From Hysterium pulicare CBS 123377 (Eukaryota > Ascomycota > Dothideomycetes > Hysteriales > Hysteriaceae): a DNA stretch of 64,000 bases. A model generated the notes under the pieces. The model saw only the letters and a list, made by a program, of their open reading frames with translations. It searched no databases and was not told the DNA's origin. Shown here piece after piece: positions 13,034 through 25,449 of this stretch. Both the position numbers and the translations under genes were made by a program. The stretch covers positions 1 through 64,000 of the forward strand of contig AJFK01000068.1 in the NCBI GenBank assembly GCA_000467715.1. Direction: 5' to 3'. The stretch's first letter is position 1, and each line of letters begins with the position of its first letter.

Positions 13034-14464
13034 ATGACTCAACTTCTGCATCTTCCTACAGAATTACTCCTTCAAATTATTTCGCACATCACCGTGACTG
13101 AGCAAACGGCGATATTGTTGCGTCTGTGTAGGTCCTCAAAACGATTATGCGCAATTACTCAACCAACTCGTTTTCGGGAACTGAGCACTGCCCTATGCAC
13201 GAGATATCGGTATGATGTGGAGAAGCCCGCCCCTATACGCCCGTTGATATCGTTCACACGTTCTATCATTGAGCGTCCCGACCTGGCTCCAAAGGTCAAA
13301 ACACTAGACATCCAAACTTAAGGCCTTCGATCGGACCAATACGACTATGGACTTGATGAAAAGTTCTGCCTTTCAGAAGAGGATCTTGACCTTTTTATCC
13401 ATGCAACACCGGAGCATATGAAGCGTACCTCTGCTTGGCAAGAAGGGATTGAGAATGTCGAAGCTTACTTTTTTATTGAGCTTCTTATCACACACTTGCC
13501 ATGTGTTGAAGAGCTAGCCTTCATCGCGATAGGCGAAATGCCGGAGTCCATCCTGCAGCTCCCTGGGAGAACAATTGCATGTTTGTCCACCAGAATCAGC
13601 GAACCCGTCCTTTCAACGCTCAAAGTCGTAGATTTAAAGCCATGTTCATTGGAGGCAAGGCTCAGTATGGCAAACTTTGCCCTTTTTCTTACTCTGCCGA
13701 CGTTGGAAACGTTTTCCGCTTCACAATGTTATGGCGGCATTGACAGCCTCCGGGCAGGTCCCTTCAACTTCCCACCGAGGAGCTTGAACGTCAAGCATAT
13801 CACACTTGAACAGTGCTGTCTAGATGCGACCTACCTTGAGGCCCTGATGACTGCATGTGGGGGTCTGGAAACGTTCTATTACAAGGCATTTTATGACTAC
13901 TTCACAGGCCCGTCTTCTTCAAGTACCCCAGAAGATTTGTCTGCAGCTCTGCAGCATCAGAAACACTCTCTACAATCATTGAATGTTTGCTGGCATTTCA
14001 CCAACTTGGGGGACGATGACATCGACTTCGACCTACCTCTTGCTAGCAAGCGCCATATGTTTTGGTTGCACGAACTCGAAAAGGTGACGCGCATACGTGC
14101 AGAGTACTAGAGGATAGTGCAGAACTTGAACCAATTGCCAGCATTTCTAGAGGAACTCGTGCTCGTACGCTGCCGGCATCTCGAACCCGAGCAGCTTACC
14201 GAGCTTTGTGAGCTCAAACGAAGTAGACATCCATCGCTGAAAAGAGTTGACGTTCAGGTTGGTGGAATGGATGGCAAGTTGACGGAACTTGCTGCCCCCT
14301 TTGGTGGTGCATGGGAGCTGTATGAGGACGATATGGGCCGCTCGTTAGACAGAATCAGGATCCCAGACCCAGACCTTGATCTTTGTTTATCATTCAACAA
14401 AAGACTTGACGATGAGCTTTCTGATACCAGAAATACTGCATCAAGCTGTCCAACATGTTCATAA
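13034..14464 (+). pseudogene. F-box/leucine-rich-repeat-like protein, interrupted by two in-frame stops
   Basis: A single plus-strand frame runs from ATG 13034 to a stop at 14462 and would encode about 476 residues, but it is interrupted by TAA at 13319-13321 and TAG at 14108-14110. The N-terminus LLHLPTELLLQIISHI is an F-box, the Skp1-binding motif of SCF ubiquitin ligases. The rest has leucine-rich-like segments (ELAFIAIGEM, LNVKHITLEQCCL, LEELVLVRCRHLEPEQL). Both stops are one C-to-T change away from a Gln codon (CAA, CAG), and the protein sense continues smoothly across both. No GT..AG pair of plausible length removes either stop. It is therefore most simply a recently inactivated member of the large fungal F-box family. 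A shorter 95-residue product from the first part is possible. Confidence 0.8.
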
Positions 14465-18038: not shown

Positions 18039-18701
18039 ATGGCTGCTCATCTGTCAAGCAATTGGAGAAGTCGTTCTGCTCCCCCGTCGACATGCTCAAA
18101 ATCGATGTCGCCCGAGTTCGATGACATCGTTGTAGGGAGAGTTTACCTCTTGCCTACAAACGTTCATGGGGCTTCAATGATTCATAGCCAGTCCTTTCGC
18201 AAAGATGGTTTTGGGCACCCCATTGTTGTACTCGCCAAGGATAGGCAGGGGGAAAATGGCAAGGGAACGATCACCTTTCTTCTCTGCACCACATTTAACA
18301 ATGCGAACTCAATTGACGACAAATGGTACCGGAACTGCCTCGAGCAGCGCCGCTGGTGGTACCAGATTGAACACCGTACCGGAGAAAAAGAGTCACATGA
18401 TGGGCTACCCCTACTGGAAGTGGAAGCAAGTTCTAACATCATGCCCAAGCGGACCTGGGTAAGGAACAACGAGGTTTGGAAGATTGAGCCGTCAAATCTC
18501 CAAGTCTTTTTCCCTGACAGAAAACCTGTGGTCTTGACACCAGCTGCGGTAAATACTTTGAAGGAAGCCTGTGGGATTCTGACGACGCCGACGCCGACGC
18601 CGACTCCTGCTCGACCAGTGGTCCAGTTTCGCAGGTCGTGGCCCGCATCAAACGGCCAGGCAAACAGCGCTTTCAGCTGGCGACAAGGCTCTTCTTTCTA
18701 A
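18039..18701 (+). CDS. unrecognised protein, single copy of a local repeated domain (family copy 1)
   Basis: An intronless frame of 220 residues starts at ATG 18039. Residues 31-165 form one copy of a domain shared with the two plus-strand genes at 21.3 and 23.7 kb: a beta-like opening VGRVYLLP, then GHPIVVLAKD, a strand ending LLCTTF, then GLPLLEVEASSNIMPKRTWVR and WKIEPSNLQVF. The C-terminal tail is a (Thr-Pro)n run encoded by GACGCC/ACGCCG repeats (18584-18606), followed by a Ser/Gln/Arg-rich end. There is no signal peptide or membrane segment, so it is probably intracellular. No known family was recognised. A CT-rich stretch precedes the ATG, as in many fungal promoters, supporting expression. 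Confidence 0.65.
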   Translation: MAAHLSSNWRSRSAPPSTCSKSMSPEFDDIVVGRVYLLPTNVHGASMIHSQSFRKDGFGHPIVVLAKDRQGENGKGTITFLLCTTFNNANSIDDKWYRNCLEQRRWWYQIEHRTGEKESHDGLPLLEVEASSNIMPKRTWVRNNEVWKIEPSNLQVFFPDRKPVVLTPAAVNTLKEACGILTTPTPTPTPARPVVQFRRSWPASNGQANSAFSWRQGSSF

Positions 18702-18759
18702 CTCGGTCCCGCACTCCGACTTCCGACAATGCCCTCATCTTTCTTCACCCCTCGCCCCA

Positions 18760-19070
18760 AAGCTTATCTCGCATCGGTCGCCACCCCCGACAGCTTCATG
18801 TTAAGTGAGCCCAAGACCAACGCCCCCAGTTTCTGGTGCTCATTGTCAGCGATCGGAACGCCGAGAACTATCGACGCACGGCCACTGACTTCTCTCCTCA
18901 CCTCTCGTCATAACACATTTCTGCATCGGACCGACACCCCCGACAGCTTTCAAGCAGCGAGCTCAAGAGCCGCCAGCACCTCTCTTCATCTCTCGTCATC
19001 AACAATATCTCGCATCGGGCCGACCCCCCCGACAGCAATTGGACAGCGAGCCAAAGAGCCGCAGAAGGAC
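18760..19070 (+). repeat. degenerate tandem repeats, three imperfect units
   Basis: A block of the type TCTCGCATCGG-(C/T)CGACCCCCGACAGC followed by a (G)AGC(G)AGCC(A)AAGAGCC-like segment recurs near 18765, 18920 and 19008, with CTCTCGTCAT between copies. The copies have drifted in sequence and spacing. They lie just downstream of family copy 1 and encode nothing recognisable. Confidence 0.5.
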
Positions 19071-19118
19071 GAGCACTGCTCTGGATTTTGGTGGTGATGA
19101 TGGGGCAAGTGGAGGACT

Positions 19119-19161
19119 ATTTCGTTTTTTTTGTTTCGTTTTGTTTCGTTTTGTTTCGTTT
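19119..19161 (+). repeat. period-10 microsatellite (TTGTTTCGTT)n
   Basis: Three perfect 10-base units preceded by a related TTTCG/T8 stretch. Simple sequence in non-coding DNA. Confidence 0.85.
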
Positions 19162-19778
19162 GTATTTGGATTGGTTGAGTATCTTGAATGGAGTTGGTGT
19201 CGCTATGACTGGGAACACCTATAGTTATGAATGTTAACGTGTTCCATGTTTCTGACAATGTGCCTTTCCTCGTCGTGATCGTGATCACTGCCTATGAAGC
19301 CCCGCTGTCTCGGGTGGCGAGGTCCCCTAGACTCCGCGCGGTCTGCTTTTCAACCCATTGATTGCAATGTATCATAGATCGTTTGAGCTCGGGGGCAAGC
19401 GTCAAGGAGGGGTCAATACCGGAGCACTATGCTGAAGGAAATTGAGGCTGTAACAGTAGTTTTTTTATAAGCAGGAAAAGGGTAAGTGGAGATTCTAGAG
19501 GTTTTCCTTGACTGTAGGATTTGGTAAGTATTCTCGCCCCCAGCCCCTTCCGGTGCAATCGGCCTACGTAGACTGTTTGGGCTCTGTAAACCTTCTCAAA
19601 GCCAGTTGCCATCTTGGAGCCAATTTAGGATGTAGCACAGTAGGCAAGCCTCGAGTGGAAGGGCTGGTAAAGGGATAGGGTCATAAATAGCGAATCTGCT
19701 TTGGCTGGCAACGAGATGTGCGTACAATATCTTGTTAGGATGAAGCGATCGGAGGGCTTCCGGCCCTTTGCGCCTCCT
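19162..19778. other. gene-free stretch
   Basis: No motif-bearing frame. A minus-strand frame near 19700 may be the tail of the neighbouring decayed coding sequence. Confidence 0.4.
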
Positions 19779-20240
19779 TCATATGCTGTCGCATACCTTT
19801 GATGTTGTTTGCCTAGCCAGTTTGTGCTCCGCCAAAGTCGTTGTAACGAAAGAGCGACCGAGCACCTTCCAAGAAGACACTGTCGCAAAAGCTTTGATTA
19901 GTATGCATGAGCGCTGAGATGACCTTTCTCTCAACCTATAGCTACTTCTCTGTGGACAATTGAGCCCATCAGCAGAAGTTCGCCACAATCGATCAAAGCA
20001 TTCAAGTTGCGCGAAGGCCATCGAAAGCCATTGGTCCCCGTCAACCTCTGTCAGTCTAGCTGAAAGCCTGGGTTGCGGCTTGTTATCAATGGCTTTAGAG
20101 CCTTTGAATAACTCGTATTCGAGTTGCAATTTTTGCCTGTAACGAGCTACAGGCATTTCGATGGAAGCGACATAACTTTCTAGGCACTCTCGGATGTTTT
20201 CTAGAGTAGTATCTTGATCCATCCGGTTTAAGCTTTGCAT
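19779..20240 (-). CDS. candidate hypothetical protein, possibly decayed
   Basis: ATG at 20240 opens a frame whose first 90 residues look like genuine protein (acidic/helical: LENIRECLESYVASIEM, RYRQKLQLEYELFKGSKAI, FAQLECFDRLW). After that the composition turns random. Coding-like sense resumes in another frame about 80 nt later (FLEGARSLFRYNDFGG), suggesting an intron or a frameshift. No family was recognised. It lies between members of the local domain family but shares no motif with them. Confidence 0.3.
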   Translation of the reverse strand: MQSLNRMDQDTTLENIRECLESYVASIEMPVARYRQKLQLEYELFKGSKAIDNKPQPRLSARLTEVDGDQWLSMAFAQLECFDRLWRTSADGLNCPQRSSYRLRERSSQRSCILIKAFATVSSWKVLGRSFVTTTLAEHKLARQTTSKVCDSI

Positions 20241-20659
20241 ATTTCACCGCAGCCACCGGGGAAATGGATGCTCATGTCTTCATGAAGCTGGTTGCAGGCT
20301 GAACGGTACAGGGTGCTCCAAATCATTGTGAAAGAACGATTTAGATCGCATGGAAATTCTTGATGTTCATCCCATAGCAAGAAGCTCCTAGAAGGGTCCA
20401 GATGAAGACCTCATTCCAAGCATCAACATCGCAGATAATTCTAGAGGTGGACCAGCGAACCGATACAGCAGCAAACCGGTAGGCTATCATCACAGCCTTC
20501 CTCCAGCTCTCCAGGAGAGTAGAATCGTTTCACTCTCTCGTTCTGGTGTGGAAATCACGAGCAATAGTCCCCAAGTTTCGTACCAATATGCCGAGGAGCA
20601 GTAGGACGAAATAAAGGGCCAAGGGTGACTTAAGGATAGGCTAAGTGGCCATGCTACTT

Positions 20660-21277
20660 TCAGCAAGACGGCACGCTCAATATGGCCGTTCGCAAAGGGA
20701 CAAGCCTCAGCGAAGGACGAGCACTGGCAAGTATACGAGTCGTAGATTCTGTGACAGGATTGTCGAAGCTAACGGTGAAGGTTAGCGTAAGACTCCGTCG
20801 GGATCCAGACGGTTTTGATGCCTTGGTGCTTGGTGATGATACAGGTTCCCCAAGGGACAGAAGTAGTGACTCCACGTTGAACCGAACATTCACGCAAAAC
20901 TTCTCCACCTTCGGCCATTTCACGTGCCAGCGGCGTTTGATGGATCCTATGACCGGATTCACTCGAGCAGGTATCCCCTCACGTCCGAGTAAAATGTACC
21001 GACGCGTCTGTTCCCAAATACATCTGTATTTCGAACCACAACCACCCGAATACCTCCTTTTCAAAGAACAACCAATCTTTCATGTGTAGGCTCTCCTTTC
21101 ATAGAGTACGAACCTAGGTTGACAAAGGATTAGATCTTTTCTGCATCTGTCCACGTACTCTGGAATTCTGAGGTCGATAGGCTCCATTTGGTTTCGGTCA
21201 TTAAACAGTAAGTCGCACCTCAGTTTGTAACGCGGTTGATTGATGCTCACGTCGTGGCCAGAAGCGTTTCCTGACAA
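20660..21277 (-). pseudogene. decayed minus-strand coding remnant, unrecognised
   Basis: Protein-like segments occur in two frames. One reads RYKLRCDLLFNDRNQMEPID from about 21240 and resumes lower down as RRWHVKWPKVEKFCVNVRF. The other frame in between gives MKDWLFFEKEVFGWLWFEIQ near 21080. The switches and stops suggest at least two disruptions unless unseen introns explain them. No family was recognised. Confidence 0.3.
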
Positions 21278-21321
21278 GACCTTGAACCGCTTGGTGTTGT
21301 TGTACCGCCTCGAGTAACGCC

Positions 21322-22707
21322 ATGGGCAGTAATAGAACTCAAAGACTAGTCAACAAGACCATCCGTCAGGGTGACCTGGCTCGAAACTTTAACCCACCCC
21401 CAACCAGTTATTCATGTGAGTATTTCAAGATCCATTCACCCCCCGAATCAATAGTAATGGTGATACAGCGGCCGTGTCAGGGCCAAAACCAATCAATGGA
21501 TTCGTTCTCACCAAGTCCCCGTCCCTCAGCAACGAAAGTATCTCGTCTCTCAGCAACGAAAGCATCTCGACCTCTGATCGAATGGATAGCGACGAAAGTA
21601 AGTCATTCTGGTAGACGTCACCTCTTTAATGCCATTGCTAACTGTATTGATAGTGACTATGGCGGAGCCTCAAGTTTTTGATAGTCATAGAGTTCACCCT
21701 GGAACAATCTACTATTTACCACCGAAAAATGAGATTGATTGGTCCTCAATAATCCTCGATCAACTAGAAGACCCGAATGCGTACGCGCACCCGGTCTTAC
21801 CGTTTCAACTCGACAAGGACGGCACCACCTGGTTTGTACAAATCACGACATCCTCATTTGACACTCCAGAGCGTGAGGGGCTGTCCTTGCGCATTGGGGA
21901 CACCGAGCAAGACGAAGGCTCCAATGTGCTCCGGTTGGCCAAGTCGTCCCCTGCCATGCCACAGCGTTCTTGGGTAAAGCTCGGTGAACGCTTCAAGATC
22001 GAGGGTAGACACCTCCAAGAATGGTGGTTCGGCGTTTCGCTCCATATAAGCGGGAAGAGGAAGATTGAAGAGCGGCTGGAATGGCTGGAGATTCAGCAAA
22101 ATCGCCCAATCTACCGCCCTCGTTGGCGCAACCTATACAATGTCAGGCCCGGGACCGTTTTGTATCTAAAGAATCGGCCTGGTGCACTAACTCATGGCGG
22201 CCCAGTTGTCATCGTGGACAATTCCGATACCCATTTCAGGTTCCTCAGGATCACCTCCTTCGCGGACTCAGAGCTTTGGCAAAGCAACCAAGGTAGCGAC
22301 GAAACCCACATCCTAATGAGGAGGCTATGCCTCGCGATCAGCAATGCAGACTGGACCCGGAAGGGTCATGATAAAACGCCGGTGATATTTCTGGAGAAGG
22401 GTAGCCCTTCAATGAGAGATGATTCCTTCATTCAGTTCCGGTTGAAACAGTGGGCAAATATCGAGTACTTCCAAACTTGGTGTTGGCCTCCAGTCGTTCT
22501 CAAAGAAGATTCGGTGCAGAAGATCTTGGAATATTGTCCAGTACATCCGTCACGAGATCGGGCTAAATGCGAATTACTCTGCGAGGCAAAGATCCTGGAC
22601 TTGGAGTTGAAAATATGTAAGTGGACCCCGATTCTGAAGCATTTCGTCCATTAGACTGACATCAAATAGATGCCAAGAACCGGAGACCAGGGAGCGATGT
22701 GGTATAG
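21322..22707 (+). CDS. unrecognised protein with two tandem copies of the local domain (family copy 2)
   Basis: Four exons (21322-21415, 21469-21597, 21654-22616, 22670-22707) give 407 residues, all junctions GT..AG and in frame. The first intron ends at ACAG 21468, the second has a GCTAACTG branch site. The N-terminal part (about 1-85) is Ser/Asn-rich and likely disordered. Domain A (about 88-210) opens HPGTIYYLPP, then HPVLPFQLDKDG, VQITTSSF, VLRLAKSSPAMPQRSWVK and FKIEGRHLQEW. Domain B (about 237-380) repeats the pattern as RPGTVLYLKN, GGPVVIVDN, FRFLRITSF, then a looser second half ending PPVVLKED. No catalytic motif, signal or membrane segment is visible. The shared pattern with neighbours shows local duplication. 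A shorter start at the Met of TMAEPQ (21659) is possible if the first exons are UTR. Confidence 0.65.
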
Positions 22708-23673
22708 CACGAAAATACTAAGGAGAGCACAGATGGAGTAGAGACTGGGTGATATGACTGGAGTTACCGTGATTGTTTGCATTGTTGACCCGATAGACGT
22801 CTATCTTTTCATGGCTGGAGGAGCAACGTCCACAGAATCAATTCTGAATCGAGAGGCGTGGTCGCCTGTCCGTCAAAGATACTCGTGCAGGTTTGTTTTT
22901 CGTCCTCTTCCACGTAATGTTGTGAGTTACTTGTTTCGGGATATTCATCACAGGCGTTGCCTTGTATAACCACAATGTTGTCTGTCACCCCAGCGATATC
23001 AAAATGCTCTCAGAACGGTCCAGTGCCTTCATTGTCCTCTTCCGTAATCATATTTGTATGGAAGTCCGGTCTTCAGATAGGGAGTTTTAGAATAGCCGGA
23101 AACATTTCGCTGCTGGCATCTCGTCATGTTCCGGATTCGAATCACACCATCTCATTCACTTGGGCTCGGGAAAGGTGAATTCACCAACCCCGCATTGACC
23201 TCTCTCCTGCCCCAAGGCAACAAGCAAATTTTCTATTCCCTCTTCTTTTCTCACGATCGCGCCACTCGTTCAACACTTCGTTGCTTCAAGCGTTGCCCGG
23301 TGCTCTCAATCTCAATCTACTGCTTTGTGTCGCGAAAAGCCTCGCGGAGCCGTAAGCTAACTATTGTTTGTAGTCACCGTCGGATGAAAGCGATTATTTT
23401 GTGGAAGCCTTTGCGAACGACCGAGTGTCAAGGCGTAGGAACGTTGCGAAGGGACAACCTCTTCTTTCACAGAAGCTTTGCGGACGCTTTCTGGGAACCA
23501 CAACCTGTCTAGTAGGAACAAATCTTCAGCGACGTCGAAAGGCCGCTCGAAACCTTGTCTCTTTCTTTTTGCTGATACCACAGAGCAGGGCCCCAAACCG
23601 TGTCTCTTTGCCTTTGATTGAGACCAGAGAGACCATTCAGTCTCTCCAACACTCACTTGTTCAACATCACCTT
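22708..23673. other. intergenic and likely 5' leader of family copy 3
   Basis: No separate gene seen. From about 23190 the plus strand is CT-rich (TTCTTTTCTCAC, CTCAATCTCAATC), a common fungal promoter/transcription-start pattern. The frame of copy 3 stays open upstream to 23401 but that part lacks family resemblance. Confidence 0.5.
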
Positions 23674-25449
23674 ATGTCTTCGAAATCGCCTGTCAACATG
23701 AATCCTCAGCCAAAACAACTTCCAAACGCTCTTCGCGAGACCGAAACCCTCCCAGGACATATACTCTTTCTGCCAGGTAGCGAACAGATCAGAGCAGATT
23801 CAGTTATTTGGAAGCAAGCCGATTCCGAATCATGCTTCATGCACCCGGTGCTGATCATAGGCCTATCAGCGGACAGGAACTACGTCCACTTTCACCTCCT
23901 GCTCATACTCCGTGGTCAGACACTCGCCAAAGCACGAAGTAGTAGTTTCGTCTGGCCTCAGTATCTGATGATTGATAGAGGTTACACACATCCTTTGGAC
24001 GAGGTCTTTGAGAGGACGAGTTTGGGGGAATATTCAGATTCACTGCCAGAGAAGTTCTGGATTCACGTGAGACGAATGTATAGAATTGAACGCCAGTATC
24101 TGCGCCAATATCCCGGCCAGTTTGCAAGGAACATATTTCTGAGTGATCCTTCCCTGGCTCAGGTCTATGCGCGAGGCTTGCTTCATCGTCTTCATCCGCC
24201 TGTTATGACGCGCTGCCCAACAAGCCACCTTCCGAAGTTGCAGGTGGGTTGCATTTATCGACTTTGTGAGCGTCCCAACACTTCTTCGATGCTATGGCAA
24301 CAGATTACGAATGACTTTGAGCGTCCTCTCGGACATCCCTTCCTCATCACCCAGATCTTCGGCACCGGAGAGATCGTACAAGGATATCCGCTGACGACTT
24401 TCGGAGAGAAAGCAATAAGCGAACGTTACGCCTTTCCAGGGCCTCACACCGAATGGATTCGTGGTCAATACTTGGTGATCGAAGGTAGCGATGCACAGAC
24501 GCATGATGACCTGCCAGTCCTTCGACTCGGGACTGGTTCACGGCAGATGCGAATGACAACCTACGTCCACGTACAGAAAGCATACGTGGTCGAATCATTG
24601 CATATCGTCGCATGGTCTAAAGAACCGGTCTTTCTGGAAGAATGTGATTGTGAGATCATTGAGCGGTATTCGCGGTATCTTGCTCAAAAGAAGAGCCCAG
24701 CTGCTGCCTTGAAGGCGATGAGGTGCGAGACTGAGGATGTCAGTGGGAAGAGTACGAGTATTCGGTCCAATTCGGTGGTCCCAGGACCTCGACCAGTCCA
24801 ACAACAGTACCAAACCGAGAATTGGGCATCTCAGCAGACAGTGGTGCATCCTTACACGCCCAGCGCGCACCCATTATGCCTTTTCGGCCCATACGATCAA
24901 TATCCTCTCGCACCTAACGCATCGCAGTTCCCCGCTTATGGTGCGCACGCCTTGCAGCAGTTCGGACTCCAGACTTCTTTTGGCGACAGCAATCAGTTTC
25001 ATGCATTCACGTCCCCTTACACCCCGAGTCCGGACAATTTAAGCCAACTGCAGACTCGTCGTGAGCGTGGGGACATGATGGTAAGATTCGCGACACATTC
25101 TGCAAATCGATTTGCATTCAACGCGGCGGCGGACGAGTTTGTGCCTGGGCGGATGGTAGAGAACATTGCCCCAAATATGAATAGGAAGGAGTTTGGCAAG
25201 CAGGGAATGAGCGCTTGCTCGTCTAGACTTTCCGCGTCTTCGAACAAGGAAAATGTGGAGCCGTCGGCTTTTGGAACGAGCACGAGCAACATTGTTGAGC
25301 TGAAGGATGCCAAGAAGACAGAAGCAGAGATCACAAAAGAGGGAGAATTGGAGAAAGAGGAGGAGTCGCATAGTCGGGGGAATGTGCTCGGTGGGACATG
25401 GATTCTCGAGAGAGTTGGGAAGAAATCGAAGTGGGTTTACAAATGGTGA
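23674..25449 (+). CDS. unrecognised protein with two tandem copies of the local domain and a long disordered tail (family copy 3)
   Basis: Intronless; the likely start is ATG 23674 (MSSKSPVNMNPQPKQ), 591 residues, chosen because the open frame above it is Arg-rich and unlike the family. Domain A (about 26-165) opens LPGHILFLPG, then MHPVLIIGLSADRN and VHFHLLLI. Domain B (about 190-330) opens VGCIYRLCERP, then GHPFLITQIFGTG, YPLTTFG, LPVLRLGTGSRQMRMTTYVH and VVESLHIVAWSKEPVFL. Residues 340-560 are Pro/Gln/Tyr/Asn-rich low complexity. The end turns charged (KKTEAEITKEGELEKEEE) and closes with GGTWILERVGKKSKWVYKW, an aromatic/basic tail. There is no signal peptide or transmembrane span. The function is unknown. 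Confidence 0.7.
   Translation: MSSKSPVNMNPQPKQLPNALRETETLPGHILFLPGSEQIRADSVIWKQADSESCFMHPVLIIGLSADRNYVHFHLLLILRGQTLAKARSSSFVWPQYLMIDRGYTHPLDEVFERTSLGEYSDSLPEKFWIHVRRMYRIERQYLRQYPGQFARNIFLSDPSLAQVYARGLLHRLHPPVMTRCPTSHLPKLQVGCIYRLCERPNTSSMLWQQITNDFERPLGHPFLITQIFGTGEIVQGYPLTTFGEKAISERYAFPGPHTEWIRGQYLVIEGSDAQTHDDLPVLRLGTGSRQMRMTTYVHVQKAYVVESLHIVAWSKEPVFLEECDCEIIERYSRYLAQKKSPAAALKAMRCETEDVSGKSTSIRSNSVVPGPRPVQQQYQTENWASQQTVVHPYTPSAHPLCLFGPYDQYPLAPNASQFPAYGAHALQQFGLQTSFGDSNQFHAFTSPYTPSPDNLSQLQTRRERGDMMVRFATHSANRFAFNAAADEFVPGRMVENIAPNMNRKEFGKQGMSACSSRLSASSNKENVEPSAFGTSTSNIVELKDAKKTEAEITKEGELEKEEESHSRGNVLGGTWILERVGKKSKWVYKW

What the first reader, a model, noticed from the sequence alone, without database searches (positions are those of the whole stretch)
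18039..25449. Local family of three genes sharing an undescribed-looking domain in five copies
Seen in sequence: three same-strand genes (18.0, 21.3, 23.7 kb) carry one, two and two copies of a ~130-residue pattern. It runs Gly-x-(Ile/Val)-(Tyr/Leu/Phe)-x-Leu near the start, then (Gly/x)HP(Val/Ile/Phe)(Val/Leu)(Val/Ile), a strand ending (I/L)(T)(T/S)F, then LP(L/V)L or VLRL, then Met-x-x-(Arg/Thr)-(Ser/Thr)-(Trp/Tyr)-Val, and finally (F/W/Y)-x-(I/V)-E with PV-x-L. I do not recognise the domain. Inference: tandem gene duplication followed by internal domain duplication and divergence, in an accessory region with decayed genes around it.
Basis: partly seen in the sequence, partly recalled or inferred. 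Interest (0 to 1): 0.82.

Follow-up and report, generated by a model that had tools for sequence, protein, structure and literature searches.

The report
Fungal gene trio with bacterial-toxin fold
Three neighbouring genes in a fungus carry five diverged copies of a domain that the family libraries tried do not recognise but that is predicted to fold like the bacterial RNA-cutting toxin MazF, with a histidine where the bacterial enzyme has its catalytic arginine.

Summary
Five copies (one, two and two per gene) are homologues: leave-one-out profiles score each at 30.7-52.9 bits; the best of 500 shuffles per test scores 3.1-5.9. Pfam, NCBIfam, PADLOC, PHROGs and PDB-sequence searches gave no significant match. 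The family looks undescribed, but the fold does not. AlphaFold models of two copies (pLDDT 72, pTM 0.71 and 0.72, five-sequence alignments) match MazF/CcdB toxins: rows 1-9 for c1 are MazF, and all 50 listed rows for c5 are toxins of this kind. Profile comparison with bacterial MazF/PemK beats all column shuffles in five alignments, with probabilities from 7 to 79%. In all five, fungal His-Pro falls on MazF Arg29-Pro30; fungal Thr falls on Thr52 in two and one residue beside it in three. Best reading: an intracellular fungal branch of the MazF fold, probably RNA-binding, possibly RNA-cutting, whose fused domains may act as a one-chain dimer. Activity, the dimer and spread in fungi were not tested. 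The proposed order of duplications is not supported; trees are unresolved.

The parts
18039..18701 (+). gene 1: 220 aa, one predicted MazF-fold domain, PT-repeat tail; no intron needed
18120..18593 (+). domain copy c1 (His-Pro codons 18216-18221; LLCTTF strand)
   Evidence: AlphaFold model of this copy; Foldseek
21582..22707 (+). gene 2 as modelled: exon 21582-21597, intron 21598-21653, exon 21654-22616, intron 22617-22669, exon from 22670 to the stop at 22705-22707; 338 aa, two domains
   Evidence: GTAAGT donors, TAG acceptors, branch-site-like CTAAC and CTGAC read by eye; not confirmed by transcripts
21680..22093 (+). domain copy c2 (His-Pro and ITTSSF both present)
22130..22558 (+). domain copy c3 (Gly-Pro at the His-Pro place, His two residues earlier; ITSF present)
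23674..25449 (+). gene 3: 591 aa from the first in-frame ATG, two domains and a long tail rich in Pro/Gln/Ser (by eye) without Pfam match
23737..24192 (+). domain copy c4 (His-Pro present; Thr of strand 3 absent)
24211..24687 (+). domain copy c5 (His-Pro and LTTF both present)
   Evidence: AlphaFold model; Foldseek

Best explanation
The five copies are a fungal branch of the MazF/PemK/CcdB toxin fold (a small SH3-like beta-barrel with a C-terminal helix). The proteins show no obvious signal peptide (by eye) and are probably intracellular. The most likely way of working is that the barrel binds single-stranded RNA in the groove that MazF uses, with the conserved His (in place of the catalytic Arg) and the Thr/Ser at the MazF active-site positions. 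At least the copies that keep both residues (c1, c2, c5) may cut RNA. In genes 2 and 3 two domains are fused, one keeping both residues and one with one of them lost or displaced, which fits a one-chain version of the MazF dimer with one working and one supporting half. Shown by computation: homology of the copies; predicted fold; alignment of His-Pro with the MazF catalytic Arg-Pro and of Thr with Thr52 or its neighbour. Inferred: RNA as ligand, cleavage, intramolecular dimer.
For: Homology of copies. Two AlphaFold runs on different copies and Foldseek over 350,542 PDB chains: c1, rows 1-9 of 50 listed are MazF (probability 0.96-1.00, best E 7.7e-3); c5, all 50 listed rows are toxin or toxin-antitoxin entries, 46 of them titled MazF/MazEF, CcdB or CptIN, the other four MoxT, a B. 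cereus mRNA interferase and two S. aureus toxin entries, which I take from memory to be MazF/PemK (best E 7.2e-4, probability 0.99-1.00, target TM 0.56-0.72). BFVD: rows 1-4, 6, 7 and 9 are named PemK or endoribonuclease; rows 5 and 8 are unnamed. hhalign of the five-copy profile against 36 bacterial MazF/PemK sequences beats all 300 or 500 column shuffles in each of the five alignments for which shuffles were run. In all five, Gly falls on Gly10 and His-Pro on Arg29-Pro30; Thr falls on Thr52 in two (the best-scoring one included) and one residue beside it in three. Bacterial columns: G10 35 of 36, R29 35 of 36 (the other is His), P30 35 of 36, T52 32 of 36 (Ser in 4). Fungal copies: Gly 5 of 5, His 4 of 5 (c3 displaced), Pro 5 of 5, Thr/Ser 4 of 5 (hand-read). 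That Arg and Thr are the catalytic residues, and that Lys or Ser can stand in for them in natural MazFs, is from passages of PMC7354611 and PMC11130411.
Against: No Pfam PemK match for any copy even at E 10. hhalign probability is 7-22% in all alignments of the five copies but one, which gives 79%; single copies give 0.2-1.6% and subsets of two or three copies 0.9-6%, scores of the size that shuffles also reach; the hand alignment beats the best shuffle only narrowly (23.4 against 22.1). AlphaFold confidence is moderate: for c1 one of five models exceeds pLDDT 54; for c5 two of five exceed 70. For c1 no Foldseek row has E of 0.001 or less, and from row 10 on most listed rows are other proteins (BAH domains, ribosomal proteins). 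Sequence identity in the toxin rows is 5-14%. The catalytic Arg is replaced in all copies, the Gln at column 77 (30 of 36 bacterial sequences) is not kept (by eye), c2 and c5 are acidic (pI 5.3 and 5.9 against 8.5 for E. coli MazF), and no antitoxin-like partner was seen. The dimer idea was not modelled.
Confidence: 0.5

Rival explanations
1. MazF fold kept as a non-catalytic scaffold: the barrels bind a protein or nucleic acid (as CcdB binds gyrase instead of cutting RNA; recalled) and have no nuclease activity.
For: Catalytic Arg replaced in all copies, c4 without the Thr, c3 with the His displaced; acidic c2 and c5; CcdB also appears among the Foldseek matches; the long tail on gene 3 suggests a binding role (inference).
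Against: His-Pro and Thr/Ser stay at or next to the active-site columns in three of five copies (c1, c2, c5) although the copies have diverged to 18-27% identity with c1, which suggests that these positions matter.
Confidence: 0.38
2. Fold misassigned: another SH3-like barrel (BAH, KOW-type ribosomal protein) that a shallow-alignment model makes look like MazF.
For: From row 10 on the c1 search lists BAH-domain and ribosomal proteins among others; the alignments hold only five sequences; hhalign probability is mostly 7-22%.
Against: The c5 search lists only toxins of the MazF/CcdB/CptN kind in its 50 listed rows; profile comparison exceeds all shuffles in five of five alignments and puts His-Pro on Arg-Pro in each.
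Confidence: 0.08
3. Recent horizontal acquisition of a bacterial mazF gene, now decaying.
For: The fold is otherwise known to me only from prokaryotes and their viruses (recalled). Third-position G+C of the three genes (0.54-0.58) is lower than that of the one comparator, the neighbouring glutamate dehydrogenase (0.68).
Against: No tblastn relative among the pattern-matched stretches of GTDB (13 stretches, gene 2 only) or IMG/VR (1, 5 and 0 stretches), and none of c1 in phages or plasmids; likely spliceosomal introns in gene 2; five very diverged copies in open frames.
Confidence: 0.04

Closest known systems
MazF/PemK/Kid type II endoribonuclease toxins (Pfam PF02452)
   Same: Predicted fold; Gly of strand 1; x-Pro of strand 2; Thr/Ser of strand 3 (on or next to the catalytic column); C-terminal helix
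   Different: Catalytic Arg replaced by His (displaced in c3); no PF02452 match; longer domain; fused tandem domains in a eukaryotic gene with likely introns; no antitoxin gene seen
CcdB gyrase poison
   Same: Same fold superfamily; appears in the Foldseek list for c5
   Different: MazF ranks above CcdB (first CcdB at rank 34); a gyrase poison is not expected to have a target in a fungal cytosol or nucleus (established knowledge)
CptN/ToxN type III toxins
   Same: CptIN entry 4rmo appears at rank 21 for c5
   Different: Type III toxins have a repeat RNA antitoxin upstream (recalled). Two short arrays lie here, 24 bp x 2.1 at 21520-21569 just before gene 2 and 89 bp x 1.9 at 18892-19062 after gene 1; neither was tested as an RNA, so this stays open

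Membership tests
MazF/PemK type II toxin family (PF02452) | Match to the Pfam PemK_toxin profile | tested here: not met
   no PemK row for the three genes or any of the five copies at E up to 10
MazF/PemK type II toxin family (PF02452) | MazF/CcdB beta-barrel fold | tested here: met
   on models of two of the five copies, of moderate confidence
MazF/PemK type II toxin family (PF02452) | Catalytic Arg at the start of strand 2 | tested here: not met
   His in 4 of 5, Gly (or a displaced His) in c3; bacterial set 35 of 36 Arg, 1 His
MazF/PemK type II toxin family (PF02452) | Catalytic Thr/Ser at the end of strand 3 | tested here: inconclusive
   4 of 5 copies have T(T/S) there by hand reading, c4 not; it falls on Thr52 in 2 of 5 profile alignments and one residue off in 3 of 5; bacterial set 36 of 36 Thr or Ser
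MazF/PemK type II toxin family (PF02452) | Cognate antitoxin gene next to the toxin gene | tested here: inconclusive
   three open frames between genes 1 and 2 have no Pfam match at E 0.001; other frames around the genes were not scanned for antitoxins
MazF/PemK type II toxin family (PF02452) | Sequence-specific RNA cleavage, dimer | not testable with these tools

The most novel reading that the evidence does not exclude
A eukaryotic clade of MazF-fold ribonucleases in filamentous fungi that uses His in place of the catalytic Arg and has turned the MazF dimer into a single chain with one active and one degenerate half, working without an antitoxin gene, for example in RNA-based stress, antiviral or self/non-self responses.
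Probability: 0.2. Interest if true: 0.82.

Novelty: new variant of a known kind. Interest (0 to 1): 0.57.

Why it matters
MazF-type toxins are described as prokaryotic (recalled; the nine searches for a fungal or eukaryotic one, named under Tried and rejected, showed none in their listings). A duplicated fungal family with this fold, with the catalytic columns partly kept, would mean that a toxin-antitoxin fold was taken into use in eukaryotes, and it would give a testable activity to proteins that Pfam leaves blank. The fused, asymmetric tandem would be a natural test of how the MazF dimer divides binding and cutting.

Tried and rejected
Searches for relatives: IMG/VR with c1, gene 2 and gene 3 and GTDB with gene 2 gave no confirmed relative; phages and plasmids by tblastn with c1 gave none. 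These collections are of viruses, prokaryotes and plasmids, so distribution among fungi stays unknown. Weak family rows (zf-PARP 0.15, HGTP_anticodon2, DUF6158, class GN sortase 0.048, phrog_22314 0.041) were rejected as chance: each hits a single gene or copy and they disagree with each other.

Trees of the five copies do not resolve the duplication order (four alignments, bootstraps 26-50). A hand-made motif alignment did not improve the MazF profile score (12%) over the best MAFFT alignment (79%); both are reported.

Papers: ten full-text searches, listings cut to 10-20 rows in some (20 of 28, 10 of 18, 12 of 4,035 and 12 of 174; none of the 12 rows held PemK). Nine of them, all but 65, looked for MazF/PemK in fungi or eukaryotes; I saw no report of a fungal MazF/PemK domain in the listings. 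PMC2446400 (passages) says that no sequence meeting all its criteria is eukaryotic but that its looser categories hold eukaryotic ones, fungal among them, for ParE and Doc; the passage is cut, so a MazF entry there is not excluded. PMC12699882 mentions MazF only in its reference list. PMC2701414 and PMC7180214: passages only.
Full report
Setting. The window is from a fungus by its contents: Med5, VTC, glutamate dehydrogenase, methionyl-tRNA synthetase, an acyl transferase, a sugar transporter and a SANT-domain protein (Pfam; 13 of 20 open frames scanned there have a match). That it is a filamentous ascomycete is my inference. No genome is held for it, and the sequence collections on hand hold bacteria, archaea, viruses and plasmids, so relatives in other fungi could not be looked for.

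Observation. The three genes and five copies are as described. Each copy, left out, is found by a profile of the other four at 30.7-52.9 bits, with the best of 500 shuffles per test at 3.1-5.9 bits; in the six-frame translation of the whole window (465 segments of 60 aa or more) the five-copy profile finds only these three genes, the next match having E 2.2. Pairwise, 8 of 10 pairs are significant on their own; c2-c3 and c3-c4 are not. The frame of gene 1 would not be striking by length, so its case rests on homology. Gene 2 has a good two-intron model that gives 338 aa; gene 3 gives 591 aa from its first ATG.

What the domain is. The copies have no significant match in Pfam, NCBIfam (one row at E 0.048), PADLOC, PHROGs (one unnamed row at E 0.041) or PDB sequences (7, gene 1; 20, profile). 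AlphaFold with the five copies as the only alignment gave moderate models for c1 (pLDDT 72.3, pTM 0.71; the other four models 37-54) and c5 (72.1, 0.72; the others 54-71). Foldseek against the PDB put MazF in rows 1-9 for c1 (of 50 listed, 411 in all; best E 7.7e-3, none at 0.001 or less; below that BAH-domain, ribosomal and other proteins). For c5 all 50 listed rows (360 in all) are toxin entries, 46 titled MazF/MazEF, CcdB or CptIN (best E 7.2e-4; target TM 0.56-0.72). The viral library gave PemK or endoribonuclease names in rows 1-4, 6, 7 and 9.

Independent check by sequence profiles. I pooled 111 bacterial MazF/PemK sequences, found from E. coli MazF and the Pfam profile, and kept 36 below 70% identity. 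The five-copy profile scored 25.6 (21%) against them, with 0 of 300 column shuffles reaching it (best 20.6) and the reversed alignment at 12.1. Over three other alignments of the copies it scored 25.2, 35.6 and 21.4 (20, 79 and 7%) against shuffle maxima of 21.2, 17.7 and 18.6 (300 each), and with a hand alignment 23.4 (12%) against 22.1 (500). Remaking the bacterial alignment changes little. Single copies give 0.2-1.6% and subsets 0.9-6%. So the sequence link is consistent but weak by itself; the fold result carries the case.

Active-site columns. In all five profile alignments the fungal strand-1 Gly falls on MazF Gly10 and His-Pro on Arg29-Pro30. The first Thr of c1's CTTF falls on Thr52 in two (the 79% one and the hand alignment) and on Thr53 in three. 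In the bacterial set these columns are Gly 35 of 36, Arg 35 of 36 (the other one His), Pro 35 of 36, Thr 32 and Ser 4 of 36. In the fungal copies: Gly 5 of 5; His 4 of 5 (c3 has Gly there and a His two residues earlier); Pro 5 of 5; Thr/Ser 4 of 5 (c4 none), by hand reading. The MPKRTWV motif of c1 resembles LPKRSWV of one bacterial member (L084). Published work names the strand-2 Arg as predicted general acid/base and the strand-3 Thr as a possible transition-state stabiliser, and notes Lys and Ser at these places in two natural MazFs (PMC7354611, passages; also PMC11130411, passages). A His could take the acid/base role; this is inference. Each two-domain gene has one copy with both residues (c2, c5) and one with one of them absent or displaced (c4, c3).

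History. There is no RIP-like skew. A broken F-box gene ends 3.6 kb before gene 1.

Mechanism and limits. Shown: a local family with a predicted MazF fold. My odds: about 0.9 for the fold, about 0.35 for RNA cleavage by copies with both residues. Untested: RNA binding, dimer in one chain, expression, spread in fungi. I do not file it as a PF02452 member, since the profile match and the catalytic Arg were tested and not met; it works, if it works as proposed, like a MazF.

Noticed in passing
window 13034-14464 +: F-box-like gene with LRR-like remainder (LRR row only at E 0.091), one reading frame broken by two stop codons at 13319 and 14108: decayed or mis-sequenced.
   Followed up: partly
window 18892-19062 (weaker copy from 18739): 89-bp tandem repeat, 1.9 copies at 82%, just downstream of gene 1.
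   Followed up: no
window 21520-21569: 24-bp tandem repeat, 2.1 copies at 92%, just upstream of the modelled start of gene 2; not tested as an RNA.
   Followed up: no
L102 (bacterial PemK-family locus): A bacterial family member with His-Pro in place of Arg-Pro, the same change as in the fungal copies; a possible natural model for the His variant.
   Followed up: no
window 24700-25449 +: Gene 3 C-terminal half, without Pfam match, ends in a compact Trp-rich stretch after a low-complexity region; it may be a separate short element.
   Followed up: no
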